From Croceivirga sp. (GTDB lineage Bacteria; Bacteroidota; Bacteroidia; Flavobacteriales; Flavobacteriaceae), in assembly GCA_028284285.1 (NCBI GenBank), contig JANQSA010000070.1, positions 1-47,949 of the forward strand: a stretch of 47,949 nt of DNA, written 5' to 3'. The notes under the pieces are model-generated. The model worked only from the letters and a program-made list of their open reading frames with translations. It was not told the origin of the DNA and searched no databases. This document shows positions 2,385 through 11,764 of this stretch, piece after piece; positions within the stretch are counted from its first letter, which is position 1; each line of letters opens with the position of its first letter. A program made the translations under genes and the position numbers.

Positions 2385-2952
2385 AACGGTGCAGATAAAC
2401 TCATCTGCACCGTTGCCCTAAAATAGCATTCAATACTGATAGGTTTGTTCAATAATGAAAAATGAACAGACGCACATTGGTAATGGATTTTTACATAGTT
2501 TTCTTAAAGTTCAAAGATTTCCTATACAAAAAATTCTTTGGATTTCTTAGTAACGGTGTACATCAATTCATGTACGGCGCTGCTATTAAATGTCGTTTAA
2601 TGCTGCTAGGTTTGTTCAATGATAGAAATGGACAAATACGCATTATAGAAAGTTATTGCATAAATATTCTTCCGAGCTCAAAGATGTTCTCTATGCAAAA
2701 CCCTTGACCATCTCAAAAGTATCGTACATCAATTTGTGTTCGCTACCCGAGGAAAATGTCGTTCAATGCTGCTAGGTTTGTTCAATCATGGAAATGAACA
2801 GATCCTAATGGAAATGGGTATGAGGTATTGTTATCCAAAGATTTTCTAAAGGTTCTTAATCTTGGAAAATTTAGCATACATAAACCCATGTATGCCAAAC
2901 GCATAAAATCCTGTCCAATACCAGTAGGTTTGTTCAATACCGTAAATCATAA
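2385..2952 (+). repeat. Array of four diverged ~160 bp repeats, each with a hairpin and a TAGGTTTGTTCAAT core
   Basis: Each unit has a hairpin with a 6-base loop, then 26-31 bases, then the invariant TAGGTTTGTTCAAT. Hairpins: 2385-2414 (12 bp stem, AACGGTGCAGAT), 2552-2579, 2723-2742, and 2874-2895 (8 bp, GCATACAT). Cores start at 2440, 2607, 2773 and 2925, i.e. 167, 166 and 152 bp apart. The stem sequences differ between units but stay paired, apart from one mismatch each in units 2 and 3. After the core, units 1-3 carry a second small hairpin (TGTTCA with TGAACA or TGGACA). A CAAAGAT(T/G)T(T/C)CT block precedes hairpins 2-4. The core contains TAGGTTTG, which fits the TAnnTTTG -7 box, and the last copy sits about 30 bases before the ATG at 2965. 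The array may be a set of small RNAs, or tandem promoter/operator units for the helix-turn-helix gene. Confidence 0.65.
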
Positions 2953-2964
2953 AATCACTGCATC

Positions 2965-3314: not shown

Positions 3315-3382
3315 GCAAGCCATGTTTTTGCATGCAAAAACTGCTCACTCTGTTCGCATGGCTTGTTGGGGATACTCCCCAA
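3315..3382 (+). other. Probable origin of transfer (oriT)
   Basis: Directly upstream of the mobC-like gene lie three nested or adjacent symmetric elements: CAAGCCATG (3316-3324) with CATGGCTTG (3357-3365); a perfect 16 bp palindrome TTTTTGCATGCAAAAA (3325-3340) inside it; and the hairpin TTGGGGA-TAC-TCCCCAA (3366-3382). Hairpins beside the relaxosome genes are the usual layout of an oriT. The nick site itself cannot be placed. Confidence 0.6.
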
Positions 3383-3394
3383 ACCCCTAAAATT

Positions 3395-3751
3395 ATGGCA
3401 AGACCAAAAAAAGATATACAAGACTTGAAAGTGATTCGCGTAAACATAAGGATGACGATTTCAGATTATCTAACAGCGACTGAAAATGCCGATACCTTGG
3501 GAATCACGCTTCCTGATTTTATCCGGATGAAGACAAGGGGAAAAACATTGCCAAGAAAAAGGATATCACCGGAATATAGAAAGCTTTTTATCGAGTTGGG
3601 CCGTATTGGAAACAACCTGAACCAATTGACAAAAAAGGTGCATTTGGGAATGCGCAATGCCCCTTTATTGATAGAAAAGTTGTCCGAAGTGAAAGACACA
3701 TTGGATGCCCTAAAAGCAAATATTGTAAACCGTGATAGCCAAGCAGATTAA
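3395..3751 (+). CDS. MobC-like plasmid mobilisation relaxosome protein
   Basis: 118 aa from the ATG at 3395 (a longer reading from 3332 would run through the oriT hairpins and is less likely). It starts 'MARPKKD', then has a ribbon-helix-helix-like stretch ('VIRVNIRMTISDYLTATENA') and the late motif 'ELGRIGNNLNQLTKKVH', which is typical of MobC/BfmB-type accessory proteins that bind oriT and help the relaxase. The 3' end overlaps the relaxase start by 20 bases, indicating translational coupling. Confidence 0.8.
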   Translation: MARPKKDIQDLKVIRVNIRMTISDYLTATENADTLGITLPDFIRMKTRGKTLPRKRISPEYRKLFIELGRIGNNLNQLTKKVHLGMRNAPLLIEKLSEVKDTLDALKANIVNRDSQAD

Positions 3752-4778
3752 GGGAAAGGATTTCTACGGGGTGCTGGCCTATAACGAAAAAAAGGTGGAG
3801 CAAGGCGTGGGATATGTATTGGACACCAATATTTCCTATGGGAAAACCGTTGATATGACCCAAGAATTCAATATCGTCAGACAGCTCCGACCAAGATTGG
3901 GAAAGGCGGTGTATCACGTTTCGTTGAACCTACCCTATGAGGATACATTAAGTGATAAAAAGTTTGTGGCCCTTGGAACCGATTATCTAAAAGGGATGGG
4001 GTTCGATGATAACCAGTATATCATCTACCGGCACAACGACCAAGAGCACGAGCATATCCATATCATTGCCAACAGGGTAAAGTTTTCGGGAGAACTGGTC
4101 AGTGACAGCAAAGATTATGAACGAAGTGAACGTTTGATCCGTAAACTGGAATTGAAGTATGGGCTGTCCCAACTTGAGGATATAAAATTGACCAGAAAGG
4201 CAACAATTACCCATAAAGAGATACAGAAGGTTTTTCGAACCGGGGAACCTCCAATCAAATTGATGCTTCAGCACCATCTTGAAAATGCCGTATTAAATTC
4301 CAGGAATACAACTGAGTTCATTAAGGAATTGGGCAAAAAGAAGATACACCCAAAGTTCAACATAAGTAAAAGTACGGGAAGGGTAACAGGAATATCTTTC
4401 CGGTACGATGATGTGATTTACAAGGGAAGTACCCTGGGACGAAAATATTCGTGGAACAATATCATTAAGAACATTGATTATGAACAAGTCAGAGACCGTA
4501 GAATTATTCTCGAAACTAATATTTCAAAACGAGGAACAGGTGGAGCTTTTGAGGAAAATTCATGGACAGCAAGAGGAACTAAGGAAAAGGCAAAGCATAC
4601 TGCACGATTGCCAGACCAGACTATTGAGCAATCAAAATCAAATATGGAAAAAGCTCAACGAATTGGATTGAAATCCCAACAAATTGATGATAATCCTTGG
4701 AATGCATTTAAGTTGGAGCTTGATGATGTTGACCGATTCAAAAAGAAGAAGCGAAAAAGAAAAGGCCTAAGGCTTTAA
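3732..4778 (+). CDS. Relaxase / mobilisation nuclease (MobA-type)
   Basis: 348 aa. The N-terminal relaxase domain carries 'VLAYNEKKV' with the likely catalytic Tyr17, and the metal-binding histidine cluster 'HEHIHII' at residues 106-112, followed by 'ANRV'. It would nick one strand at oriT, stay bound to the 5' end, and pilot the strand into a host mating apparatus. The C-terminal 80 residues are charged and low in predicted fold, ending in a Lys/Arg-rich tail. No conjugation (tra) genes are in the window, so the element would need a helper. A coiled-coil-like frame overlaps its end in the +1 frame (see findings). Confidence 0.88.
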   Translation: MIAKQIKGKDFYGVLAYNEKKVEQGVGYVLDTNISYGKTVDMTQEFNIVRQLRPRLGKAVYHVSLNLPYEDTLSDKKFVALGTDYLKGMGFDDNQYIIYRHNDQEHEHIHIIANRVKFSGELVSDSKDYERSERLIRKLELKYGLSQLEDIKLTRKATITHKEIQKVFRTGEPPIKLMLQHHLENAVLNSRNTTEFIKELGKKKIHPKFNISKSTGRVTGISFRYDDVIYKGSTLGRKYSWNNIIKNIDYEQVRDRRIILETNISKRGTGGAFEENSWTARGTKEKAKHTARLPDQTIEQSKSNMEKAQRIGLKSQQIDDNPWNAFKLELDDVDRFKKKKRKRKGLRL

Positions 4779-4833: not shown

Positions 4834-5055
4834 CTATAATTCTAAATTTCCTAAGGATTTAAAATGATTACTTGAGAAATAGTTTTTAAAAAAGGATGCG
4901 GTGAGAGTATTGGACTTGAAATTTTTTGGAAAACCTACATTTTCAAAATTTAGGTTAGGCTCGTATTTTAAACATTGGGTAGGAATACTCATATAACAAA
5001 GCAGAAAAATAGCGTTTGAATCGATTCTAGGACCATTAAAAATCCAACAAATCAT
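4834..5055 (-). CDS. Possible small protein, 73 aa, coupled to the peptidase gene
   Basis: The ATG overlaps the TGA of the upstream cysteine peptidase gene (ATGA at 5052-5055), a common sign of translational coupling. The product has three Cys, many Phe/Asn, and no recognised motif. The DNA is AT-rich, so a chance frame is quite possible. Confidence 0.3.
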   Translation of the reverse strand: MICWIFNGPRIDSNAIFLLCYMSIPTQCLKYEPNLNFENVGFPKNFKSNTLTASFFKNYFSSNHFKSLGNLEL

Positions 5056-6569
5056 AAAGCTTTAATAATGAAGTTATAGTAATTTCCCTTATCCTTATGC
5101 CTAATAAGAGGTTCGAGAATACCTTTATTATTTCTAAGGAAATCCTTTAATTTTATTCTAATGGGTCGGGGCAGAAAGCATATTACATCAAGTCCCAACA
5201 TAGCGTTATGGACACCCGTTGCATCAAAGACAAACTCCATCAATATTTGATTGGCCACGTAGCAATTGGCAACCCAGACATATTTTGGGTAAGGTCTTGT
5301 CAATCGCTTGATTTTAGCGGCTTTAGTTAAGGTGGAGTGTTTTATGGCTTCCTTATGTTTTTGGGTATAATGAATTTTTATGTCCCAGACCAAATCAGAG
5401 ATGATTTGGTTTCCAAAGAACAACCTCAGAATAACATCAAGCCCTAAAACAATTGCTTCAATGTTCTCATAGGAAATTCGAATTTTCGGAAATACTGGAA
5501 CTATAATATTCTGGACAAGGGTTGGTCTTGTTTTGGCATCAGATTTTGTCCAATGGTTTTCTATCTCTTTTTCATTTAAGAAGGTTATCCTCGCAAAAGG
5601 GCCCCATTGGTCATCATGGGCATAGATTTTTTCAATATTTTCAGAATACCATGTGATATCGTTCTTAGGTTGGCTGGGTTCCAATTTTTTTTGTTTGAAA
5701 CCTGAGACCGTTATGGCATGTGCCCCATAATTGGCTCCTATGGGAACCTTTATGACCAAAATTATTGGAATGCCAATCGCTGAGTACGCATTCAGTATCT
5801 TACGGAGATACGATCCGCTTACCACATATCCATGCTCTTCGTTATATTTTACATTTCCTCTTTTAACCTCGGATACAAGTCCAGAATTTACGATGGCTTG
5901 ACATATTTGAAGAAGATTCAGTCCCTTATTGGGAAAAAGCCTGCTCCCGTCTGACGATACGGTATCTGCATCACGGGTAATACGACTGGGAGATTTAAGG
6001 GTGGTGTAAAAATCGAGTGAGGCCTTGCTCAGCATAGACCATATTGCCGTAGTGGCACATGCGGCTATAACACTGTCTTGTTCTTGGAAAGCCAAGGAAT
6101 TGACCTTAAGCTTTTTCCCAAAGAAGTGAACTTCGTAATCCCTGGTGCCCCAGAATATTCGTGGTTGACTTTCATTGGCATAGGTACGTAATATAGTCAA
6201 CCCAATTACGGTAATCGGTATTGGCTTCACTACAATAAACCCTAGATAACCGTTCCAGAAGTCTTGATTGTCCTCCAGAATCTGCTGTGATAGGTCAGAT
6301 GAATTGAATCTTTTTGAAAAGAAATGTACCCTTCTACAATTCTTAGGATACCGCTCATAGCAATAGGCGTAGTAGGAAGAATATCCATCCAGAAAATCCT
6401 TACTTATATAATTTTCCTCAATGACAAGCGTTCGCGCCTTTATGTCCGGTGAGGAGAGATACTCAAAAAGGTAAACAAATTGGTTTTTACCGAGGATAAC
6501 ATCCTTGGAGGTGTGAGCGTTTTTTATAGCATTAGCAAAGGTTGATTTTGTAAATGAACGTACCTTCAA
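5052..6569 (-). CDS. Putative papain/C39-like cysteine peptidase, 505 aa
   Basis: I do not recognise the full-length family. The middle holds what looks like a papain-fold catalytic set in order: Gln164 and Cys171 in 'EQDSVIAACATTAIW', His284 in 'YGAHAITVSGF', and Asp319/Asp320 in 'AHDDQWGPFARI'. The spacing and the 'xxCxxTAxW ... GxHAxTVxG ... DDQxGP' pattern fit a C39- or papain-like thiol peptidase. The 160 residues before and the 180 after have no known domain; there is no signal peptide or membrane span, so it should act in the cytoplasm. It is the fourth gene of the XRE-ImmA operon, 10 bp after the small acidic protein, and diverges from the ubiquitin-like operon. I infer that it may cleave ubiquitin-like conjugates or act as an effector. 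The fold call is moderately sure; the role is a guess. Confidence 0.6.
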   Translation of the reverse strand: MKVRSFTKSTFANAIKNAHTSKDVILGKNQFVYLFEYLSSPDIKARTLVIEENYISKDFLDGYSSYYAYCYERYPKNCRRVHFFSKRFNSSDLSQQILEDNQDFWNGYLGFIVVKPIPITVIGLTILRTYANESQPRIFWGTRDYEVHFFGKKLKVNSLAFQEQDSVIAACATTAIWSMLSKASLDFYTTLKSPSRITRDADTVSSDGSRLFPNKGLNLLQICQAIVNSGLVSEVKRGNVKYNEEHGYVVSGSYLRKILNAYSAIGIPIILVIKVPIGANYGAHAITVSGFKQKKLEPSQPKNDITWYSENIEKIYAHDDQWGPFARITFLNEKEIENHWTKSDAKTRPTLVQNIIVPVFPKIRISYENIEAIVLGLDVILRLFFGNQIISDLVWDIKIHYTQKHKEAIKHSTLTKAAKIKRLTRPYPKYVWVANCYVANQILMEFVFDATGVHNAMLGLDVICFLPRPIRIKLKDFLRNNKGILEPLIRHKDKGNYYNFIIKAL

Positions 6570-6579
6570 TACATGTAAA

Positions 6580-6783
6580 CTATAGTTGCACTACGGTCCT
6601 CAATTCATCCTGATCAAGTTGGTTCAGGCGAAGGACCTCCATTTGTTGTTCCAGGGTTCTTTCGATAAGGGTATTCACGTCCTCACTCTCGTTTAATTTT
6701 TCCGATGTAAAGTCAGCCCCTTCAATGAATATGGATTCGATATTATGATCTTCAGTTTTCTTGGGTGTCTTTACAGTGCTCAT
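6580..6783 (-). CDS. Small acidic helical protein, 67 aa
   Basis: No family recognised. The product is acidic; residues 34-62 form a likely amphipathic helix ('TLIERTLEQQMEVLRLNQL'). It lies 132 bp downstream of the ImmA gene and 10 bp upstream of the cysteine peptidase start, so it is probably co-translated with the peptidase. It could be a chaperone, inhibitor or substrate for the peptidase; nothing in the sequence decides this. The 132 bp gap may hold its own weak promoter (TATCTTTA in minus-strand sense). Confidence 0.6.
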   Translation of the reverse strand: MSTVKTPKKTEDHNIESIFIEGADFTSEKLNESEDVNTLIERTLEQQMEVLRLNQLDQDELRTVVQL

Positions 6784-6915
6784 ATTTCTGGTTTTTAGTA
6801 TGTTATAACGCTACAGCCCTAAAGATAAACATATTTAGGACTTCTACTTAGGATGCCATCCACAAAACGTTGGAAAGTTTGGTAAATTGCAGGGGCAATA
6901 GGAATCCTTAAGGAA

Positions 6916-7446
6916 CTATTTTCCCGCGGTAAGGTTCAGATTTGACAAACGTATGGCCATAGCTATACTGCTCACATCAAAAGTGGCTGCCATTTCCTTT
7001 ACAACATTATCATCCGTCAAAAAGGGCTTCTCCTTATACAACAGATCAAGTTCCTTTTGAATCAAATGCCCTGGCATCAGAACCGTAGCGGCAAAAACAT
7101 TGGCTTCGCGCTCTTGTCTAATTTGTGCTCTGGTCGCATTCTGCCGACGGAACATCACTTTTACGTTATCCACGAAAAGGTCATCTTTCTTGTCCATACC
7201 GTGAAGAAGGTAATGGCCAAGTTCGTGGGCAATGGTGAAACGCTGTCTGACCTGCGATTCGGATGGATTATAGCCGATTCTCGCTTTGCCATTTTCGATG
7301 ACCAATGCCCCGGATACTTCATCGCCAAGGTTATAGGCCTGTAGTTTGATTCCGAGGTCTCTTACAATTTTTTTAATGGGGATGGGGACAGATTGCACAT
7401 TCAGCCTATTAAGAAGTTCCAACCCCTTCTGCTCTGCAATTTTCAT
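6916..7446 (-). CDS. ImmA/IrrE family zinc metallopeptidase
   Basis: 176 aa. The zinc motif 'HELGH' is at residues 74-78 in 'RFTIAHELGHYLLHG', and the third ligand is probably Glu113 in 'EREANVFAA'. Upstream is the usual short N-terminal part of the family and downstream the MPGHLI region. ImmA/IrrE peptidases cleave a partner XRE-type repressor upon a signal (DNA damage, phage entry). The partner is almost surely the XRE gene 22 bp upstream in the same operon. Length is normal for the family and all ligands are present. Confidence 0.9.
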   Translation of the reverse strand: MKIAEQKGLELLNRLNVQSVPIPIKKIVRDLGIKLQAYNLGDEVSGALVIENGKARIGYNPSESQVRQRFTIAHELGHYLLHGMDKKDDLFVDNVKVMFRRQNATRAQIRQEREANVFAATVLMPGHLIQKELDLLYKEKPFLTDDNVVKEMAATFDVSSIAMAIRLSNLNLTAGK

Positions 7447-7468
7447 TTAAAAAAATTAACGGTTTCTG

Positions 7469-7816
7469 TCAATTGGACTGACTTATAAACGAGTTAAGAT
7501 TTTCCATGGAGTCCTCATGGATATGTCCCTTTTCTGTCGATTCCTTAATAAATTTCTCAAACAGAGGGTTCAACTCGTTGGTAGATGTTTGAAATTCGGG
7601 AATAAAATTGCCAACATTTACCTCAAGGATTTCTGAGAGTGACCACAACAAATGAAGTGGTGGATGTTGCCTCCCTTTTTCAATATTAACGATGGATGCA
7701 CGGCTCATATTGACTTTTTTCGCAAGGCCCGCCTGGCTCATTGCTGCTTTAGTACGTGCTTTCCTAATGGACTTGCCTACCTGTATGTAGAATTGCTCCT
7801 TATCGTTATCCGTCAT
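7469..7816 (-). CDS. XRE-family helix-turn-helix repressor
   Basis: 115 aa. The Cro/CI helix-turn-helix spans about residues 12-68 ('MSQAGLAKKVNMSRASIVNIEKG'-like region; the recognition helix is around 'SRASIVNIE'). The C-terminal 45 residues are polar and may be the ImmA-sensitive part. It has a near-consensus promoter with a leader of only about 15 bases. It is first in the leftward operon and diverges from the ubiquitin-like operon, with a palindrome between the two promoters, so it is well placed to repress both. Confidence 0.9.
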   Translation of the reverse strand: MTDNDKEQFYIQVGKSIRKARTKAAMSQAGLAKKVNMSRASIVNIEKGRQHPPLHLLWSLSEILEVNVGNFIPEFQTSTNELNPLFEKFIKESTEKGHIHEDSMENLNSFISQSN

Positions 7817-7839
7817 ATTTTGATACGTGGTTTGTCTTG

Positions 7840-7871
7840 CAAAGGTAGGACATTATGTTGAATTATGCAAA
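7840..7871 (-). promoter_or_regulatory. Bacteroidota-type promoter of the XRE-ImmA operon
   Basis: Minus-strand reading: -33 TTTG (7868-7871), 20 bp spacer, -7 TACCTTTG (7840-7847). This fits TTTG-N19/20-TAnnTTTG. The transcript start would be about 15-17 bases before the XRE ATG at 7816. Confidence 0.75.
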
Positions 7872-7876
7872 CAGTT

Positions 7877-7890
7877 TGTAAAATTATACA
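7877..7890. promoter_or_regulatory. Candidate operator palindrome between the divergent promoters
   Basis: TGTAAAATTATACA is symmetric at 12 of 14 positions and sits between the -33 boxes of the leftward (7868-7871) and rightward (7912-7914) promoters. A repressor bound here could block both. The XRE protein is the obvious candidate. Confidence 0.45.
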
Positions 7891-7911
7891 CTTAAATTAT
7901 TTTTTTAAAAC

Positions 7912-7941
7912 TTGACATTTTAAGAAATTGATCTATCTTTG
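7912..7941 (+). promoter_or_regulatory. Bacteroidota-type promoter of the multiubiquitin operon
   Basis: -33 TTG (7912-7914) in 'CTTGACA', 19 bp spacer, -7 TATCTTTG (7934-7941): a perfect TTG-N19-TAnnTTTG. Transcription should begin near 7948, leaving a leader of about 280 bases before the first gene. Confidence 0.75.
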
Positions 7942-7948
7942 TTCTCAT

Positions 7949-8229
7949 ATTGTATTGAGATATGGAAAGGACATTTAAAATTGATAGCGGATAAAAAAAG
8001 AAAAATCCAATCCATTGCGGTAACAACAGATTGGATCACGATAAGGGAAATAAAGTTTGGACACTTGCGCATCGAGGCTTATCACCTTGATGGTTCCCCA
8101 GTTCTACTTACAATGTTAGCCATTTTCTCTATGTGGCGCAAGTAATTGGATCATAAAACTTACCTGAGTGGTAGTGTTCCCGAGCCGCTTTAAAACCGAG
8201 GGATTAAAAACAAAAAAATTATAAATATT
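7949..8229 (+). other. Long leader of the multiubiquitin operon with inverted repeats
   Basis: The expected transcript starts about 280 bases before the first gene. It contains two exact 8 bp inverted repeats: ATCCAATC (8005-8012) with GATTGGAT (8029-8036), and ACTTGCGC (8063-8070) with GCGCAAGT (8136-8143). A frame ending at 8145 could encode about 54 residues from a TTG at 7981, but has no recognised family. It may be a regulatory leader or a decayed small gene. Confidence 0.4.
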
Positions 8230-8898
8230 ATGAAAACCGAGTTTAGGTTTAAGGTAAACGCAAAGCGTTTTGAAACAAACAATCCAATTATCAATGGCCA
8301 CCAAATTCTAGAGCTAGCCGGCCTGGAGCCAACTGAAGACTACGAATTACTCCAACGCATCAACGAAAAGGGCTTCGAACCCGTGCAATTGGATGAGGAA
8401 GTGGACTTGAGGGAAGTGGGAATCGAGGGGTTCCGCGCCAAGCCTTACAAGCAGATTCCCATTGTCGTCGATGGAAAGACCATAAAAGTTGAGGAGTGTT
8501 TCATGACACCACTGGAAATTTTGAATCTGGTGGAAAAGGACCCTAACGACTATTTCCTCAAAGAAATCAGAAACGGGGATGTCGAAATCGGCTACGGAGA
8601 AGATTTGGAACACAAGGTGGGTCTAAATCGGAAATCTGTATTCGAGAGCTGCCCAATCAAGTTAGAATATCACCTCATTGTCAATGCGAGACCTGAGACA
8701 TGGTCTAAGGACACAATAACCTATGAGGAGGTAATAATCCTGGCCTTTGGTAGTATTTCCAACAATCCGTATATCTGTTATACGGTCAATTATAAGCGGG
8801 GGCCCAAGGGAAGTCCTGAAGGTAGCCTCGTACAGGGACAAAGCGTGAAAGTTCAACAAAAAATGGTGTTCAATGTCACTCGAACTGATAAATCGTAG
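8230..8898 (+). CDS. Multiubiquitin protein with three ubiquitin-like domains
   Basis: 222 aa, cytoplasmic. Three consecutive beta-grasp-like units: about residues 1-73, 74-142 and 145-222. The last is the clearest match to the multiubiquitin family: 'YHLIVNARPETW', 'ITYEEVIILAF', then 'GSLVQGQSVKVQQKM' and the tail 'FNVTRTDKS'. The second begins 'IPIVVDGKTIKVEE' with 'MTPLEILNLV', the same layout. The C-terminus is not Gly-Gly, unlike eukaryotic ubiquitin, so activation may use the terminal residues directly or after trimming. It is the first gene of a three-gene overlapping operon with an E1-like enzyme and a DUF6527-type protein; it overlaps the E1 gene by 26 bases. It is the protein modifier of the system. 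Confidence 0.85.
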   Translation: MKTEFRFKVNAKRFETNNPIINGHQILELAGLEPTEDYELLQRINEKGFEPVQLDEEVDLREVGIEGFRAKPYKQIPIVVDGKTIKVEECFMTPLEILNLVEKDPNDYFLKEIRNGDVEIGYGEDLEHKVGLNRKSVFESCPIKLEYHLIVNARPETWSKDTITYEEVIILAFGSISNNPYICYTVNYKRGPKGSPEGSLVQGQSVKVQQKMVFNVTRTDKS

Positions 8899-10054
8899 TC
8901 CAGATATTATGAAACTTCGTAACGAGGGTTACGAAGTTTCAATCCATGGGGCCTACTTGGTCATTACCAATGTACCTTATGTGGACCAGAGCAAACAAAT
9001 AAGAAGGGGAACTTTGGTTTCCGACATTACCATTGGTGCCGGAAAAGCTGTCCGCCCAAGGAGCCATGTAGTCCATTTTGCTGGAAGCCATCCTTGCAAT
9101 TCCGATGGAGCGATTATACAATCCATCCGACATGCATCATCCTCCAACGTCCTGGGCGGTGTCAGGGTCGACCATTCCTTTTCCAGTAAACCGCAAGGTG
9201 GATATGCTGACTATTATGCCAAGATGACACAGTATATCCAGATAATATCCAATCCCGCTAGGGCCATTGATAAGACCGTTACGGCCAAAACCTTCAAGGT
9301 GTGTGAGGATATCGAAGATGATTCAAAGTTTTTGTATCTCGACACCAACGCCAGCCGGTCACATATAGATCATATTGCAAATAAGGTGAAAGGTCAAAAG
9401 GTTGGAATAATTGGTCTGGGAGGCACCGGATCATATATTTTAGACAAAGTGGCCAAGACCAAGGCTGCTGAGATTCATCTTTTTGACGGCGATGCATTTT
9501 TTCAGCACAATGCTTTCCGGGCACCAGGTTCCGCCACTTTAAAGGAATTGAACCTCGGTATGCAGAAGGTTGATTATTATGCAAGCAAATACGGCCACAT
9601 GCATGGCACAATCATTCCTCACAACATTTATGTGGACGCAACGAATCTATCGCTTTTAGATGAATTGGACTTTGTCTTTATCGCCATTGACAGGAATGAG
9701 CCGAAAAAAATCATTTTTGAGCGCTTAATCAGTCTGGAAATCCCATTTATCGATGTGGGCATGGGCGTGGATAGAGTAGATGGTGCATTAACTGGTATGT
9801 TACGGGTCAGTCTCTGTACTGCAAAAAATGCCAAGACTTTCATGGATTCCAAGAGGATTTCGTTTGCGGATGAAGAGGATCATGGAGCTTACAATGACAA
9901 TATTCAAATTGCGGAGTTGAATGATTTGAATGCTTGTCTCGCCATCATAAAATGGAAAAAGCTATTTGGTATTTTTCATGATAATGAAGGTGAATTTAAT
10001 GCAACGTATTCCATCAACATCAACTCCATATACAATGAAGACTCTGGAGCCTAG
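8873..10054 (+). CDS. ThiF/E1-like adenylyltransferase with E2-like N-terminal domain
   Basis: 393 aa. The C-terminal half is an E1/ThiF fold: nucleotide loop 'GLGGTGS' (181-187), 'FDGD' (204-207), 'NAFRAPG' (213-219), 'GMQKVDYY' with Lys232, and 'AIDRNE' (271-276). It should adenylate the C-terminus of the ubiquitin-like protein. The N-terminal 170 residues ('RNEGYEVSIHGAYLVITNVPYV', then 'HVVHFAGSHPCNSDG') match the DUF6791-type domain that precedes ThiF in such operons. 'HPCNSDG' resembles the E2 'HPN...G' motif, but the Cys expected a few residues later is absent (see findings). The ATG at 8873 overlaps the multiubiquitin gene; a second ATG at 8909 is possible, yet the residues before it look conserved ('RSPDIMKL'). 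Confidence 0.85.
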   Translation: MSLELINRSPDIMKLRNEGYEVSIHGAYLVITNVPYVDQSKQIRRGTLVSDITIGAGKAVRPRSHVVHFAGSHPCNSDGAIIQSIRHASSSNVLGGVRVDHSFSSKPQGGYADYYAKMTQYIQIISNPARAIDKTVTAKTFKVCEDIEDDSKFLYLDTNASRSHIDHIANKVKGQKVGIIGLGGTGSYILDKVAKTKAAEIHLFDGDAFFQHNAFRAPGSATLKELNLGMQKVDYYASKYGHMHGTIIPHNIYVDATNLSLLDELDFVFIAIDRNEPKKIIFERLISLEIPFIDVGMGVDRVDGALTGMLRVSLCTAKNAKTFMDSKRISFADEEDHGAYNDNIQIAELNDLNACLAIIKWKKLFGIFHDNEGEFNATYSININSIYNEDSGA

Positions 10055-10424
10055 ATTTGTCGATACCATTCCAAGGGAACTTGAGGATGGCGTTCTCTAT
10101 TTTGCAATGGAGTATGGAACTGTGCTGCACAAATGTTGCTGTGGTTGTGGGAGCGAGGTTAACACCCCGCTCTCCCCCAAAGATTGGAACATGAAGTATG
10201 ATGGGCAAAAAGTCTCATTGAGCCCCTCAATAGGAAATTGGGACTATCCATGCAAATCTCATTATTGGATTAAAGAAAACAAAGTAGTATGGGATAGAAC
10301 ATGGAGTCAAATTGAGATAGATGAAAATCGCAGACTTGATAATCGGATTAAAACGAAAAACAGCTACCCCAATAAACAAAAGAATAAGAACTTGCTGAGA
10401 AAGATTTTAGACTGGTTAGCCTAA
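10035..10424 (+). CDS. DUF6527-type zinc-binding protein of the ubiquitin-like operon
   Basis: 129 aa from the ATG at 10035, which overlaps the E1 gene by 20 bases. A longer reading from 9966 only adds residues in the E1 overlap. Hallmarks of DUF6527 are present: 'HKCCCGCGSEV' (residues 32-42), 'SLSPSIGNW' (61-69) and 'PCKSHYWI' (72-79). The Cys and His residues suggest a zinc site; the invariant Ser and His residues could be catalytic. Proteins of this family sit with ThiF and ubiquitin-like genes, and I recall recent reports treating them as peptidases of Bub systems, which should be verified. The C-terminal 35 residues are lysine-rich. Its likely job is processing or removal of the ubiquitin-like protein. 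Confidence 0.8.
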   Translation: MKTLEPRFVDTIPRELEDGVLYFAMEYGTVLHKCCCGCGSEVNTPLSPKDWNMKYDGQKVSLSPSIGNWDYPCKSHYWIKENKVVWDRTWSQIEIDENRRLDNRIKTKNSYPNKQKNKNLLRKILDWLA

Positions 10425-10690: not shown

Positions 10691-11455
10691 TCATACAATT
10701 TCAATACAACTATCCCTGGAAAAATCGTGATGCTCATTCATGTGAACATACCCTAATTGATTACTTAGCATGGTAGTACCTCCTAACTTCATACCACTGC
10801 CAACGTTTCGATGTATATGTCCATACATCCAATAATCGATATTGGACCTGGTAATAAAATCCGTTTTATCGACAACGAAGGCATCGTTGATAGCACTGTC
10901 CTTAAACTCTGTAGAATTACACAGCGGTGTAGGCAAATGGTGGGTTACCACAATTATTTTGCCTTCATGGTCATTTATACTTGTTGCGATAAAATCAAAC
11001 GCCTCAGCATGAAGCTGATTAAAATAGTCAATCGTTAAAATTTTATCACCTATTCTTATTTTATGGAAGTCATTGACGTAAACGGACACTGAAGTGCTGT
11101 TTTGGGGATGAATGTGAGTCCAAAGAGTAGAAAAGAGAAACCCAATGCTGTTTATTTCTACTGCTTGATTGTTTAGTAGGAACACATTTGGCTGCAATTC
11201 CCATTGAAAAGGCTTTTGATGTAAAGCCAAATCATATCCACCATAGTATTCATGGTTGCCTGGTATCACATAGGCCTGTTCGTAATGATCGGACACCCAT
11301 TTAAAAAAGTCAAGATTTTCAAAATCAGATCCGAGATAATGGGTGTCCCCGGCAATAATCAGAATCTCCCCAGAAGGAATCAAGGGATGGTTTGCCAGCC
11401 ACTTTCGGTTTTGGGGAAACTCCAAGTGTAAATCGGAACAGTATTGTACTTTCAC
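10691..11455 (-). CDS. Calcineurin-like metallophosphoesterase
   Basis: 254 aa. All metallophosphoesterase motifs are visible: 'SDLHLE' (7-12), 'AGDTH', 'GNHEYY', 'VVTHHLPT' and 'YGHIHRN'. It should bind two metal ions and hydrolyse a phosphoester; the substrate is unknown. No signal peptide. It converges on the ubiquitin-like operon, with 266 bp between them that hold no firm gene (an 81-codon frame from a TTG at 10511 overlaps this gene's end and is weak). It may be cargo of the same accessory region; small enzymes of this type also occur alone in genomes. Confidence 0.85.
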   Translation of the reverse strand: MKVQYCSDLHLEFPQNRKWLANHPLIPSGEILIIAGDTHYLGSDFENLDFFKWVSDHYEQAYVIPGNHEYYGGYDLALHQKPFQWELQPNVFLLNNQAVEINSIGFLFSTLWTHIHPQNSTSVSVYVNDFHKIRIGDKILTIDYFNQLHAEAFDFIATSINDHEGKIIVVTHHLPTPLCNSTEFKDSAINDAFVVDKTDFITRSNIDYWMYGHIHRNVGSGMKLGGTTMLSNQLGYVHMNEHHDFSRDSCIEIV

Positions 11456-11687: not shown

Positions 11688-11690
11688 ATG

Positions 11691-11764
11691 CGGTCTGGAC
11701 GGGACTCGAACCCGCGACCCCCTGCGTGACAGGCAGGTATTCTAACCAACTGAACTACCAGACC
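11691..11764 (-). tRNA. tRNA-Asp (GTC)
   Basis: Minus strand: acceptor GGTCTGG, D-arm with GTTCAGTTGGTTAGA, anticodon stem CCTGC/GCAGG with loop CTGTCAC (anticodon GTC), T-loop GGTTCGAGTCC, acceptor CCAGACC and discriminator G. CCA is not encoded. It marks the step from the accessory region to core genes and is a common integration target for elements. Confidence 0.95.

What the first reader, a model, noticed from the sequence alone, without database searches (positions are those of the whole stretch)
5052..10424. Ubiquitin-like conjugation locus with an ImmA/XRE switch and a linked cysteine peptidase
Rightward operon: multiubiquitin, E2-like/E1-like ThiF fusion, DUF6527-type protein, all overlapping. 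Leftward operon from the same 100 bp control region: XRE, ImmA/IrrE, a 67-residue acidic protein and a papain-like peptidase. Seen directly: gene order, overlaps, motifs. Established: ubiquitin-like, ThiF and DUF6527 genes form bacterial conjugation systems (Bub-like, found in defence islands, as I recall). Inference: all seven genes form one regulated system, where ImmA cleaves XRE on infection or damage and releases conjugation. It sits beside mobilisation genes, as defence systems often do.
Basis: partly seen in the sequence, partly recalled or inferred. Interest (0 to 1): 0.85.

Follow-up and report, generated by a model that had tools for sequence, protein, structure and literature searches.

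The report
Bacterial ubiquitin-like locus with protease cassette
A bacterial ubiquitin-like protein-tagging locus with a known type of DNA-damage switch also carries a little-known protease gene paired with a tiny protein, and this pair turns up beside such tagging genes repeatedly in distant bacteria, which suggests a partnership still to be tested.

Summary
The seven genes are real. The rightward trio belongs to the polyUbl group 6e of 2006, now called Bub; its E1 model matches BubCD best. The divergent XRE and ImmA are CapH/CapP-like, and that pairing with Bub is published (219 of 544 Bub operons have CapW or CapH+CapP; PMC13373217). The control region is 413 bp, not 100. The less expected part is the leftward pair. 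The 505-aa peptidase has a Q/C/H/D set invariant in 56 of 56 rows and a staphopain/C39-like core, but no Pfam or NCBIfam family. Its tiny neighbour shares a conserved C-terminal tail with small proteins beside homologues (61 of 94 loci, against 0 of 411 control genes). The pair lies by a Bub E1 in 23 of 94 loci; 38 have none and 33 are too short to judge. Layouts differ, and at least 7 label changes on the tree are forced. Conversely, of 22 less selected Bub loci only the window has the peptidase. I read it as an accessory protease-inhibitor module repeatedly joined to Bub: likely, untested. The two main Bub papers could not be read.

The parts
5052..6569 (-). cysteine peptidase, 505 aa, TTG start; Q164, C171, H284, D319/D320
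   Evidence: invariant in 56 of 56 rows; model pLDDT 93.1; staphopain/C39 core; no Pfam, NCBIfam or PADLOC hit
6580..6783 (-). 67-aa acidic partner of the peptidase, with conserved C-terminal tail ending ...LDQDELRTVVQL
6784..6915 (-). gap between ImmA and the small gene with a promoter-like stretch conserved in L081
   Evidence: role inferred
6916..7446 (-). ImmA/IrrE-type metallopeptidase (M78), CapP-like, HELGH
   Evidence: (capP 2.7e-33, profile positions 6-154 of 242)
7469..7816 (-). XRE-family regulator, CapH-like
   Evidence: capH 5.3e-8
7817..8229 (.). 413-bp divergent control region and leader of the trio
7840..7847 (-). leftward -7-like motif TACCTTTG (Bacteroidota consensus recalled, from no call), conserved in L081
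7867..7879 (.). palindrome GCAAACAGTTTGT, candidate operator; ACAAACTGTTTGT in L081
7934..7941 (+). rightward -7-like motif TATCTTTG; also scored as a sigma-70-like site 7912-7939, in a scan that found no more sites than its shuffles
8230..8898 (+). tandem ubiquitin-like protein (two Multi_ubiq domains), C-terminus ...TDKS
   Evidence: (PDB 9cd2 6.4e-20)
8873..10054 (+). DUF6791-ThiF protein, E1 of Bub/6e; I equate DUF6791 with 'domain X' of the 2006 table
   Evidence: best fold match BubCD
10035..10424 (+). DUF6527 metal-binding-type protein (ORF runs from 9966; likely start 10035)
3332..3751 (+). NikA-like/MobC mobilisation protein
3732..4778 (+). MobA/VirD2-like relaxase

Best explanation
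A mobilisable stress or anti-phage island made of three modules. (1) A Bub/6e conjugation trio: ThiF activates the C-terminal Ser of the tandem ubiquitin-like protein, with DUF6791 (where BubCD has a JAMM domain) and DUF6527 helping transfer or target choice. (2) A CapH/CapP-like switch: XRE represses the divergent promoters through the palindrome at 7867-7879; ImmA cleaves XRE after DNA damage or infection. (3) An accessory cassette: a staphopain/C39-like cysteine peptidase, probably cytosolic, and its cognate small partner, which most likely holds the peptidase inactive through its conserved C-terminal tail. When the trio is induced, conjugation (or loss of the small partner) would free or steer the peptidase, which acts as effector. 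Shown here: genes, families, order, recurrence, cassette, conserved catalytic set and tail. Inferred: all regulation, inhibition, activation and targets.
For: Trio families and best structural match BubCD. CapP and CapH profile hits. Published: 219 of 544 Bub operons with CapW or CapH+CapP (PMC13373217, passages). Palindrome conserved between window and L081. A Bub E1 within 6.5 kb of the peptidase in 23 of 94 loci: 19 of the 80 loci kept by the genome scan (L134 with a partial E1 and no Ubl seen on a short contig), the window, G334 and 2 of 4 plasmid hits; a Ubl is also seen in 20 of the 23 by my profile, and in L048 and L080 by a weak Pfam hit and by record annotation. At least four layouts, L152 a fifth. 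At least 10 label changes on the tree, 7 forced by supported branches, gains and losses not told apart. Clusters of ORFs of 90 aa or more within 7 kb of 94 peptidases: Bub E1 in 23 loci, Ubl 20, XRE/ImmA 20, DUF6527 19; one unidentified cluster in 13; the rest in 4 or fewer. Small partner tail: 61 of 94 peptidase loci at 4 bits or more, 1 of 9557 other small ORFs, 0 of 411 control genes. Peptidase core matches staphopains, including complexes with their small inhibitor staphostatin.
Against: 38 of 94 peptidase loci have at least 5 kb on both sides and no Bub E1 within 6.5 kb; 33 more were too short to judge. The Bub label is clustered on the tree (0 of 500 shuffles as low), so part of the count is shared descent. 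The peptidase is in 1 of 22 Bub loci of the phylum sample. Of 10 neighbours that I picked from 9 loci without Bub, PADLOC names type I restriction genes (L100, L115), a Snf2-type helicase and a PDC-S06 protein (both L117) and a caspase (L077), a weak Cas3-like hit in L116 is HrpB by Pfam, and four have no PADLOC hit; L086, L116 and L136 look like housekeeping. TrlF lies by L079 (annotation). A possible own promoter upstream of the small gene. Nothing shows inhibition. 33 of 94 loci fall below the tail score, among them L078, L080, L044 and L047-L052. Foldseek's top hits are TDE_0362 constructs, and TM-scores over the whole query are low (0.19-0.24). The 80 loci are the best of 262, so fractions are biased towards the window's kin. 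PMC13373217 says protection against phage has not been demonstrated for Bub.
Confidence: 0.5

Rival explanations
1. Defence-island company only: the peptidase plus small protein is a stand-alone toxin-antitoxin-like or defence unit, and Bub is just a frequent neighbour on mobile islands.
For: 38 of 94 loci with good flanks lack a Bub E1; other defence genes nearby in some loci; the cassette has its own conserved upstream gap.
Against: Apart from one unidentified cluster in 13 loci, no other ORF cluster recurs in more than 4 of 94 loci, whereas Bub genes recur in 19-23; several layouts and at least 7 forced changes on the tree.
Confidence: 0.25
2. The peptidase is a deconjugase or maturation protease for the ubiquitin-like protein, replacing the JAMM domain missing from the window's E1.
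For: Papain-like folds are common among eukaryotic deubiquitinases (PMC1779556, passages); the window E1 carries DUF6791 where others have a JAMM-like motif.
Against: 17 of 23 Bub+peptidase loci have an E1 with a JAMM-like motif, 5 the DUF6791 type, 1 undetermined (motif search); the Ubl C-terminus ends flush at Ser in 17 of 17 aligned Ubls of the DUF6791 type, 5 with and 12 without a peptidase seen, so no propeptide is seen (Ubls of the JAMM type were not aligned); 38 of 61 judged peptidase loci have no Bub E1.
Confidence: 0.15
3. The small protein is the substrate or precursor: the peptidase cuts it (C39-like, as with leader peptides) to make a signal or an active peptide.
For: C39 peptidases of PCAT1/ComA are among the structural matches; a small ORF lies beside 91 of 94 peptidases by a loose test (192 of 411 control genes also pass that test).
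Against: The conserved part is the very C-terminus, not an N-terminal leader; no cluster that I recognised as an exporter recurs (one cluster not identified).
Confidence: 0.15

Closest known systems
Bub pathway / polyUbl operon group 6e (Iyer et al. 2006, PMC1779556, passages; Ye et al. 2026 and Gong et al. 2025 not held, not read)
   Same: tandem ubiquitin-like protein, ThiF-type E1, metal-binding protein; 'domain X' in place of JAB is already in the 2006 table; best fold match BubCD
   Different: DUF6791 instead of a JAMM domain; no separate E2 gene in the window; peptidase-plus-small-protein cassette
CapH+CapP switch (PMC13373217, passages)
   Same: XRE plus M78 peptidase, divergent from an immune-type operon; profile hits capP 2.7e-33 and capH 5.3e-8
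   Different: ImmA is 176 aa and matches only positions 6-154 of the 242-position capP profile, so the C-terminal part is missing
Staphopain and its inhibitor staphostatin (biology recalled)
   Same: papain-like core fold (1cv8 3.9e-5, TM 0.63 over the target); small partner encoded next door
   Different: no hydrophobic N-terminal stretch; extra N- and C-terminal regions; partner mostly 55-70 aa with a conserved C-terminal tail, against about 105-110 aa recalled for staphostatin; no sequence match to the PDB
Peptidase C39 / Peptidase_C39_2
   Same: Q/C/H/D set and fold; weak Pfam hits in 7 of 56 members, best 6.5e-4
   Different: not part of a transporter; protein of about 500 aa; the window member itself has no hit

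Membership tests
Bub / group 6e | tandem ubiquitin-like protein | tested here: met
   two Multi_ubiq domains; PDB 9cd2 over residues 7-222
Bub / group 6e | ThiF-type E1 | tested here: met
Bub / group 6e | JAMM/JAB domain fused to E1 (BubCD) | tested here: not met
   DUF6791 instead, no JAMM-like motif; the 2006 table allows 'domain X' in 6e, so 6e membership holds but the BubCD architecture does not
Bub / group 6e | E2 or E2/RWD-like protein | tested here: inconclusive
   DUF6791 model has helix, strands, helix and invariant H65, P74, C75, G79 in 7 rows but no E2 hit by profile
Bub / group 6e | metal-binding protein | tested here: met
   DUF6527 with invariant C-x-C-G-C and C-x-x-H in 17 rows; that it is protein Y of 2006 is my equation
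Bub / group 6e | protein conjugation activity | not testable with these tools
   -
CapH+CapP | HTH repressor and M78 protease side by side, divergent from the operon | tested here: met
CapH+CapP | full-length CapP | tested here: not met
   positions 6-154 of 242 only; so CapP-like, not filed as CapP
CapH+CapP | ssDNA-activated cleavage of the repressor | not testable with these tools
   -
Staphopain (C47) | papain-like catalytic core | tested here: met
Staphopain (C47) | secreted zymogen (recalled feature) | tested here: not met
   no hydrophobic N-terminal stretch by a simple hydropathy window
Staphostatin | inhibits the neighbouring peptidase | not testable with these tools
   only adjacency and the conserved tail are shown
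Peptidase_C39_2 (Pfam) | profile match | tested here: inconclusive
   7 of 56 members, best 6.5e-4; window member none

The most novel reading that the evidence does not exclude
A new, widely spread two-gene immune module, a cytosolic papain-like protease locked by a tiny protein through its C-terminal tail (a protease toxin-antitoxin), which bacterial ubiquitin-like conjugation systems have repeatedly captured as their effector: conjugation of the lock or of the protease would unleash proteolysis.
Probability: 0.3. Interest if true: 0.85.

Novelty: new variant of a known kind. Interest (0 to 1): 0.6.

Why it matters
Bub operons have not been shown to protect against phage, and may be immune or general stress pathways (PMC13373217). 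A protease cassette that recurs beside them in several layouts is a concrete, testable candidate for an output, and the conserved small partner is a candidate inhibitor or conjugation target. The peptidase is also a family for which I found no own Pfam or NCBIfam model, spread over several bacterial phyla and two MAGs labelled archaea (L123, L135).

Tried and rejected
Peptidase as Ubl maturation protease: set low because the aligned Ubl C-termini end flush. Peptidase as stand-in for a missing JAMM domain: set low because 17 of 23 linked loci have a JAMM-like motif. Small ORF 7939-8145 as a gene: in the alignment with L081 the reading frame is broken (read by eye), so it is left as conserved leader. 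The metallophosphoesterase 10691-11455 as an eighth gene: relatives in only 2 of the other 117 loci, one of them weak. Rfam in the control region: nothing at E<=1. Peptidase in 50,697 phage records: none; in IMG/VR: 6 contigs, neighbours not examined. E1 in IMG/VR: the single-protein scan gave none, the alignment scan gave 4 loci. DUF6791, DUF6527 and peptidase profiles against the PDB: no useful hit. Peptidase model against viral models: nothing at 0.001.

Literature: no held paper has the word DUF6527. In the listings shown by searches (8 to 20 rows each, of up to 12,068 hits) I saw none whose title or abstract start links a cysteine peptidase to Bub. PMC12687455 (passages) says such operons can include 'a specific protease'; which one is not said in the passages. 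The two main Bub papers are not held, so absence from print is not shown.

Rows dropped or doubtful: 33 of 94 peptidase loci with short flanks were not used as 'no Bub'. L044 and L104 hold the same peptidase and L089-L091 are near copies. L045 was counted as 'no' although an E1-like ORF of 309 aa lies 6.7 kb away, just beyond the 6.5-kb limit and without a Ubl. In A1 the L046 row was given without its N-terminus. The random-sample Bub count used 23 loci plus the window, 2 dropped for short upstream sequence; L053 and G334:C14 were not in it. The PSSM was seeded with 16 loci chosen by eye and iterated; each locus was scored with itself and tails at 50% identity or more left out; controls were scored with the final matrix.
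Full report
What is there. Rightward: a tandem ubiquitin-like protein, a DUF6791-ThiF protein and a DUF6527 protein. The overlaps are 26 bp and, with the start suggested by the alignment (10035), 20 bp. Leftward: XRE, ImmA, a 67-aa protein and a 505-aa peptidase. The intergenic region is 413 bp, not 100. Mobilisation genes (NikA-like/MobC and relaxase) lie to the left. The same seven-gene order exists in Flagellimonas amoyensis (L081); the seven proteins are 54-75% identical, with synonymous change far above non-synonymous.

The trio is known. Iyer et al. 2006 (PMC1779556, passages only) list group 6e: polyUbl, E1 fused to JAB or to a distinct 'domain X', and a metal-binding protein Y. I equate X with DUF6791 and Y with DUF6527; that equation is mine. 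The current name is Bub. The Ubl matches PDB 9cd2 over residues 7-222 (6.4e-20), and the best structural matches of the E1 model are Citrobacter BubCD (1.2e-11; model pLDDT 70, seven rows). Whether DUF6791 is E2-like stays open: the model shows a helix, strands and a helix, and H65, P74, C75 and G79 are invariant in seven rows, but a profile found no E2 in the PDB. In L067 and L068 DUF6791 and ThiF are separate overlapping ORFs.

The switch is known too. ImmA hits capP at 2.7e-33 and XRE hits capH at 5.3e-8. PMC13373217 (passages) states that 219 of 544 Bub operons carry CapW or CapH+CapP. In a sample of 395 genomes of the phylum, 22 had Multi_ubiq. Of 24 such loci scored, 22 had at least 1.5 kb upstream, window included; 14 of these had an M78 gene within 3 kb, 11 of them divergent. 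The 37 ORFs labelled ImmA by my profile all carry HExxH and 10 of 10 tested are Peptidase_M78. The window's ImmA lacks about the last third of the capP profile. A palindrome at 7867-7879 is conserved in L081 and lies between two promoter-like motifs. One such site with up to one mismatch is expected 0.17 times per window by chance, and the sigma-70 scan found no more sites than its shuffles (17 against 16.6), so conservation in L081, not rarity, is the argument.

The peptidase. No Pfam, NCBIfam or PADLOC hit for the window protein; 7 of 56 relatives hit Peptidase_C39_2 weakly. Q164, C171, H284 and D319/D320 are invariant in 56 of 56 rows. The model is good (pLDDT 93.1). Its best Foldseek hits are TDE_0362 constructs, then staphopains, staphopain-staphostatin complexes and C39 domains; only the core matches (TM 0.19-0.24 over the query, up to 0.63 over staphopain 1cv8). 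Relatives: 10 of 395 genomes of the phylum by single sequence, 10 of 390 by profile, 4 of 72,556 plasmid records. A genome scan found 262 relatives and kept the best 80.

Its partner. Beside nearly every peptidase lies a small ORF: 91 of 94 by a loose test, but the same test is met by 192 of 411 control genes. The sequence is the stronger evidence. The last 18 residues follow a pattern, roughly hydrophobic-x-K-x-K/R-E-V/I-D-x-E-x-L-K-x-x-V/F-x-L/I at the very end. By a matrix that leaves out close copies, 61 of 94 peptidase loci reach 4 bits, against 1 of 9557 other small ORFs and 0 of 411 control genes. The other 33 do not reach it. Several of them show the pattern shifted by a few residues, by eye; in L047 and L049-L052 the small ORF lies downstream and its tail is only loosely similar, by eye.

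Link to Bub. Of 94 peptidase loci, 23 have a Bub E1 within 6.5 kb, 38 have none with at least 5 kb on both sides, 33 are too short. The 23 are 19 of the 80 scanned loci (one with a partial E1 only, L134), the window, G334 and two of four plasmid records (Pseudomonas aeruginosa and Mesorhizobium). A Ubl is seen in 20 of the 23 by my profile, in L080 by annotation and in L048 by a below-cut-off hit. Layouts: window-like (window, L081, L094, L099); downstream of the trio and codirectional (L085, L088-L092, L078, L105); convergent (L083, L095, L101, L048, L080); divergent from the trio without ImmA (L110, L111, L114, L118); L152 has a fifth. ImmA lies beside 15 of the 23, 16 with a weak hit in L099. 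The tree needs at least 10 changes of the label, 7 forced by supported branches (quick method, long branches present; gains and losses not told apart; the label is clustered, 0 of 500 shuffles as low). Among ORF clusters (90 aa or more) within 7 kb of 94 peptidases, Bub E1, Ubl, DUF6527 and XRE/ImmA recur in 19-23 loci, one unidentified cluster in 13, and the rest in 4 or fewer.

Against. The 80 loci are the best of 262, so 19 of 80 overstates the family-wide rate. In the phylum sample, 2 of 10 peptidase genomes had Bub beside it, one of these being the window itself, with 3 of the 10 (L044, L049, L051) too short on a side to judge. Conversely 1 of 22 Bub loci had the peptidase, G334:C14 not counted. 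Elsewhere the cassette sits by type I restriction genes (L100, L115), a Snf2-type helicase and a PDC-S06 protein (L117), a caspase (L077) or TrlF (L079), but also by genes that look like housekeeping (L086, L116, L136); these are 10 neighbours that I picked plus record annotation, not a census. A conserved promoter-like stretch precedes the small gene, so the pair may be expressed on its own.

How it most likely works. Under repression, XRE holds both divergent promoters. Damage or infection activates ImmA, XRE is cut, and the trio is made (inferred from CapH/CapP). The Ubl, which ends in Ser in 17 of 17 aligned proteins of its type, is activated by ThiF and attached to targets (inferred from Bub). 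The peptidase is kept inactive by its small partner through the C-terminal tail (inferred from adjacency, the conserved tail and the staphopain-staphostatin analogy, the latter recalled). Conjugation or loss of the partner frees it. It is unlikely to be the Ubl protease: 17 of 23 linked loci have an E1 with a JAMM-like motif.

Verdict. The trio and the switch are ordinary members of known kinds. I saw the peptidase cassette and its repeated pairing with Bub described in none of the listings and passages named above; the two central Bub papers were not readable, so this is not a claim that it is unpublished. A functional link is likely but unproven.

Noticed in passing
window 2421-2955: Four copies of a repeat of about 50 nt (64-90% alike to the reference copy, spacing 152-167) just before the HTH_17, MobC-like and relaxase genes; perhaps an oriT or regulator site.
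   Followed up: no
window 7980-8150: Part of the leader of the trio is well conserved in L081 although the ORF 7939-8145 is not; no Rfam match.
   Followed up: partly
window 6784-6915: Stretch AAATATRTTTATCTT before the small gene conserved in L081, promoter-like.
   Followed up: partly
L110, L111, L114, L118 between the Ubl gene and the peptidase: A 186-aa protein (four loci; no Pfam hit in the one tested, L114) and a 94-113-aa protein (three loci) lie near the peptidase cassette on the Ubl side in L114; no ImmA hit there.
   Followed up: partly
window 10691-11455 and L152 7756-8508: A metallophosphoesterase next to Bub plus peptidase in two distant genomes; may be coincidence.
   Followed up: partly
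L067 8742-9942, L068 7153-8338: DUF6791 and ThiF encoded as two overlapping ORFs, so DUF6791 may be a protein of its own.
   Followed up: partly
L161-L166: Six IMG/VR contigs encode distant peptidase relatives; neighbours not examined.
   Followed up: no
window 11690-11764: tRNA-Asp shortly right of the island, a possible insertion site; not tested, and no clear flanking repeat stood out in the repeat list.
   Followed up: no
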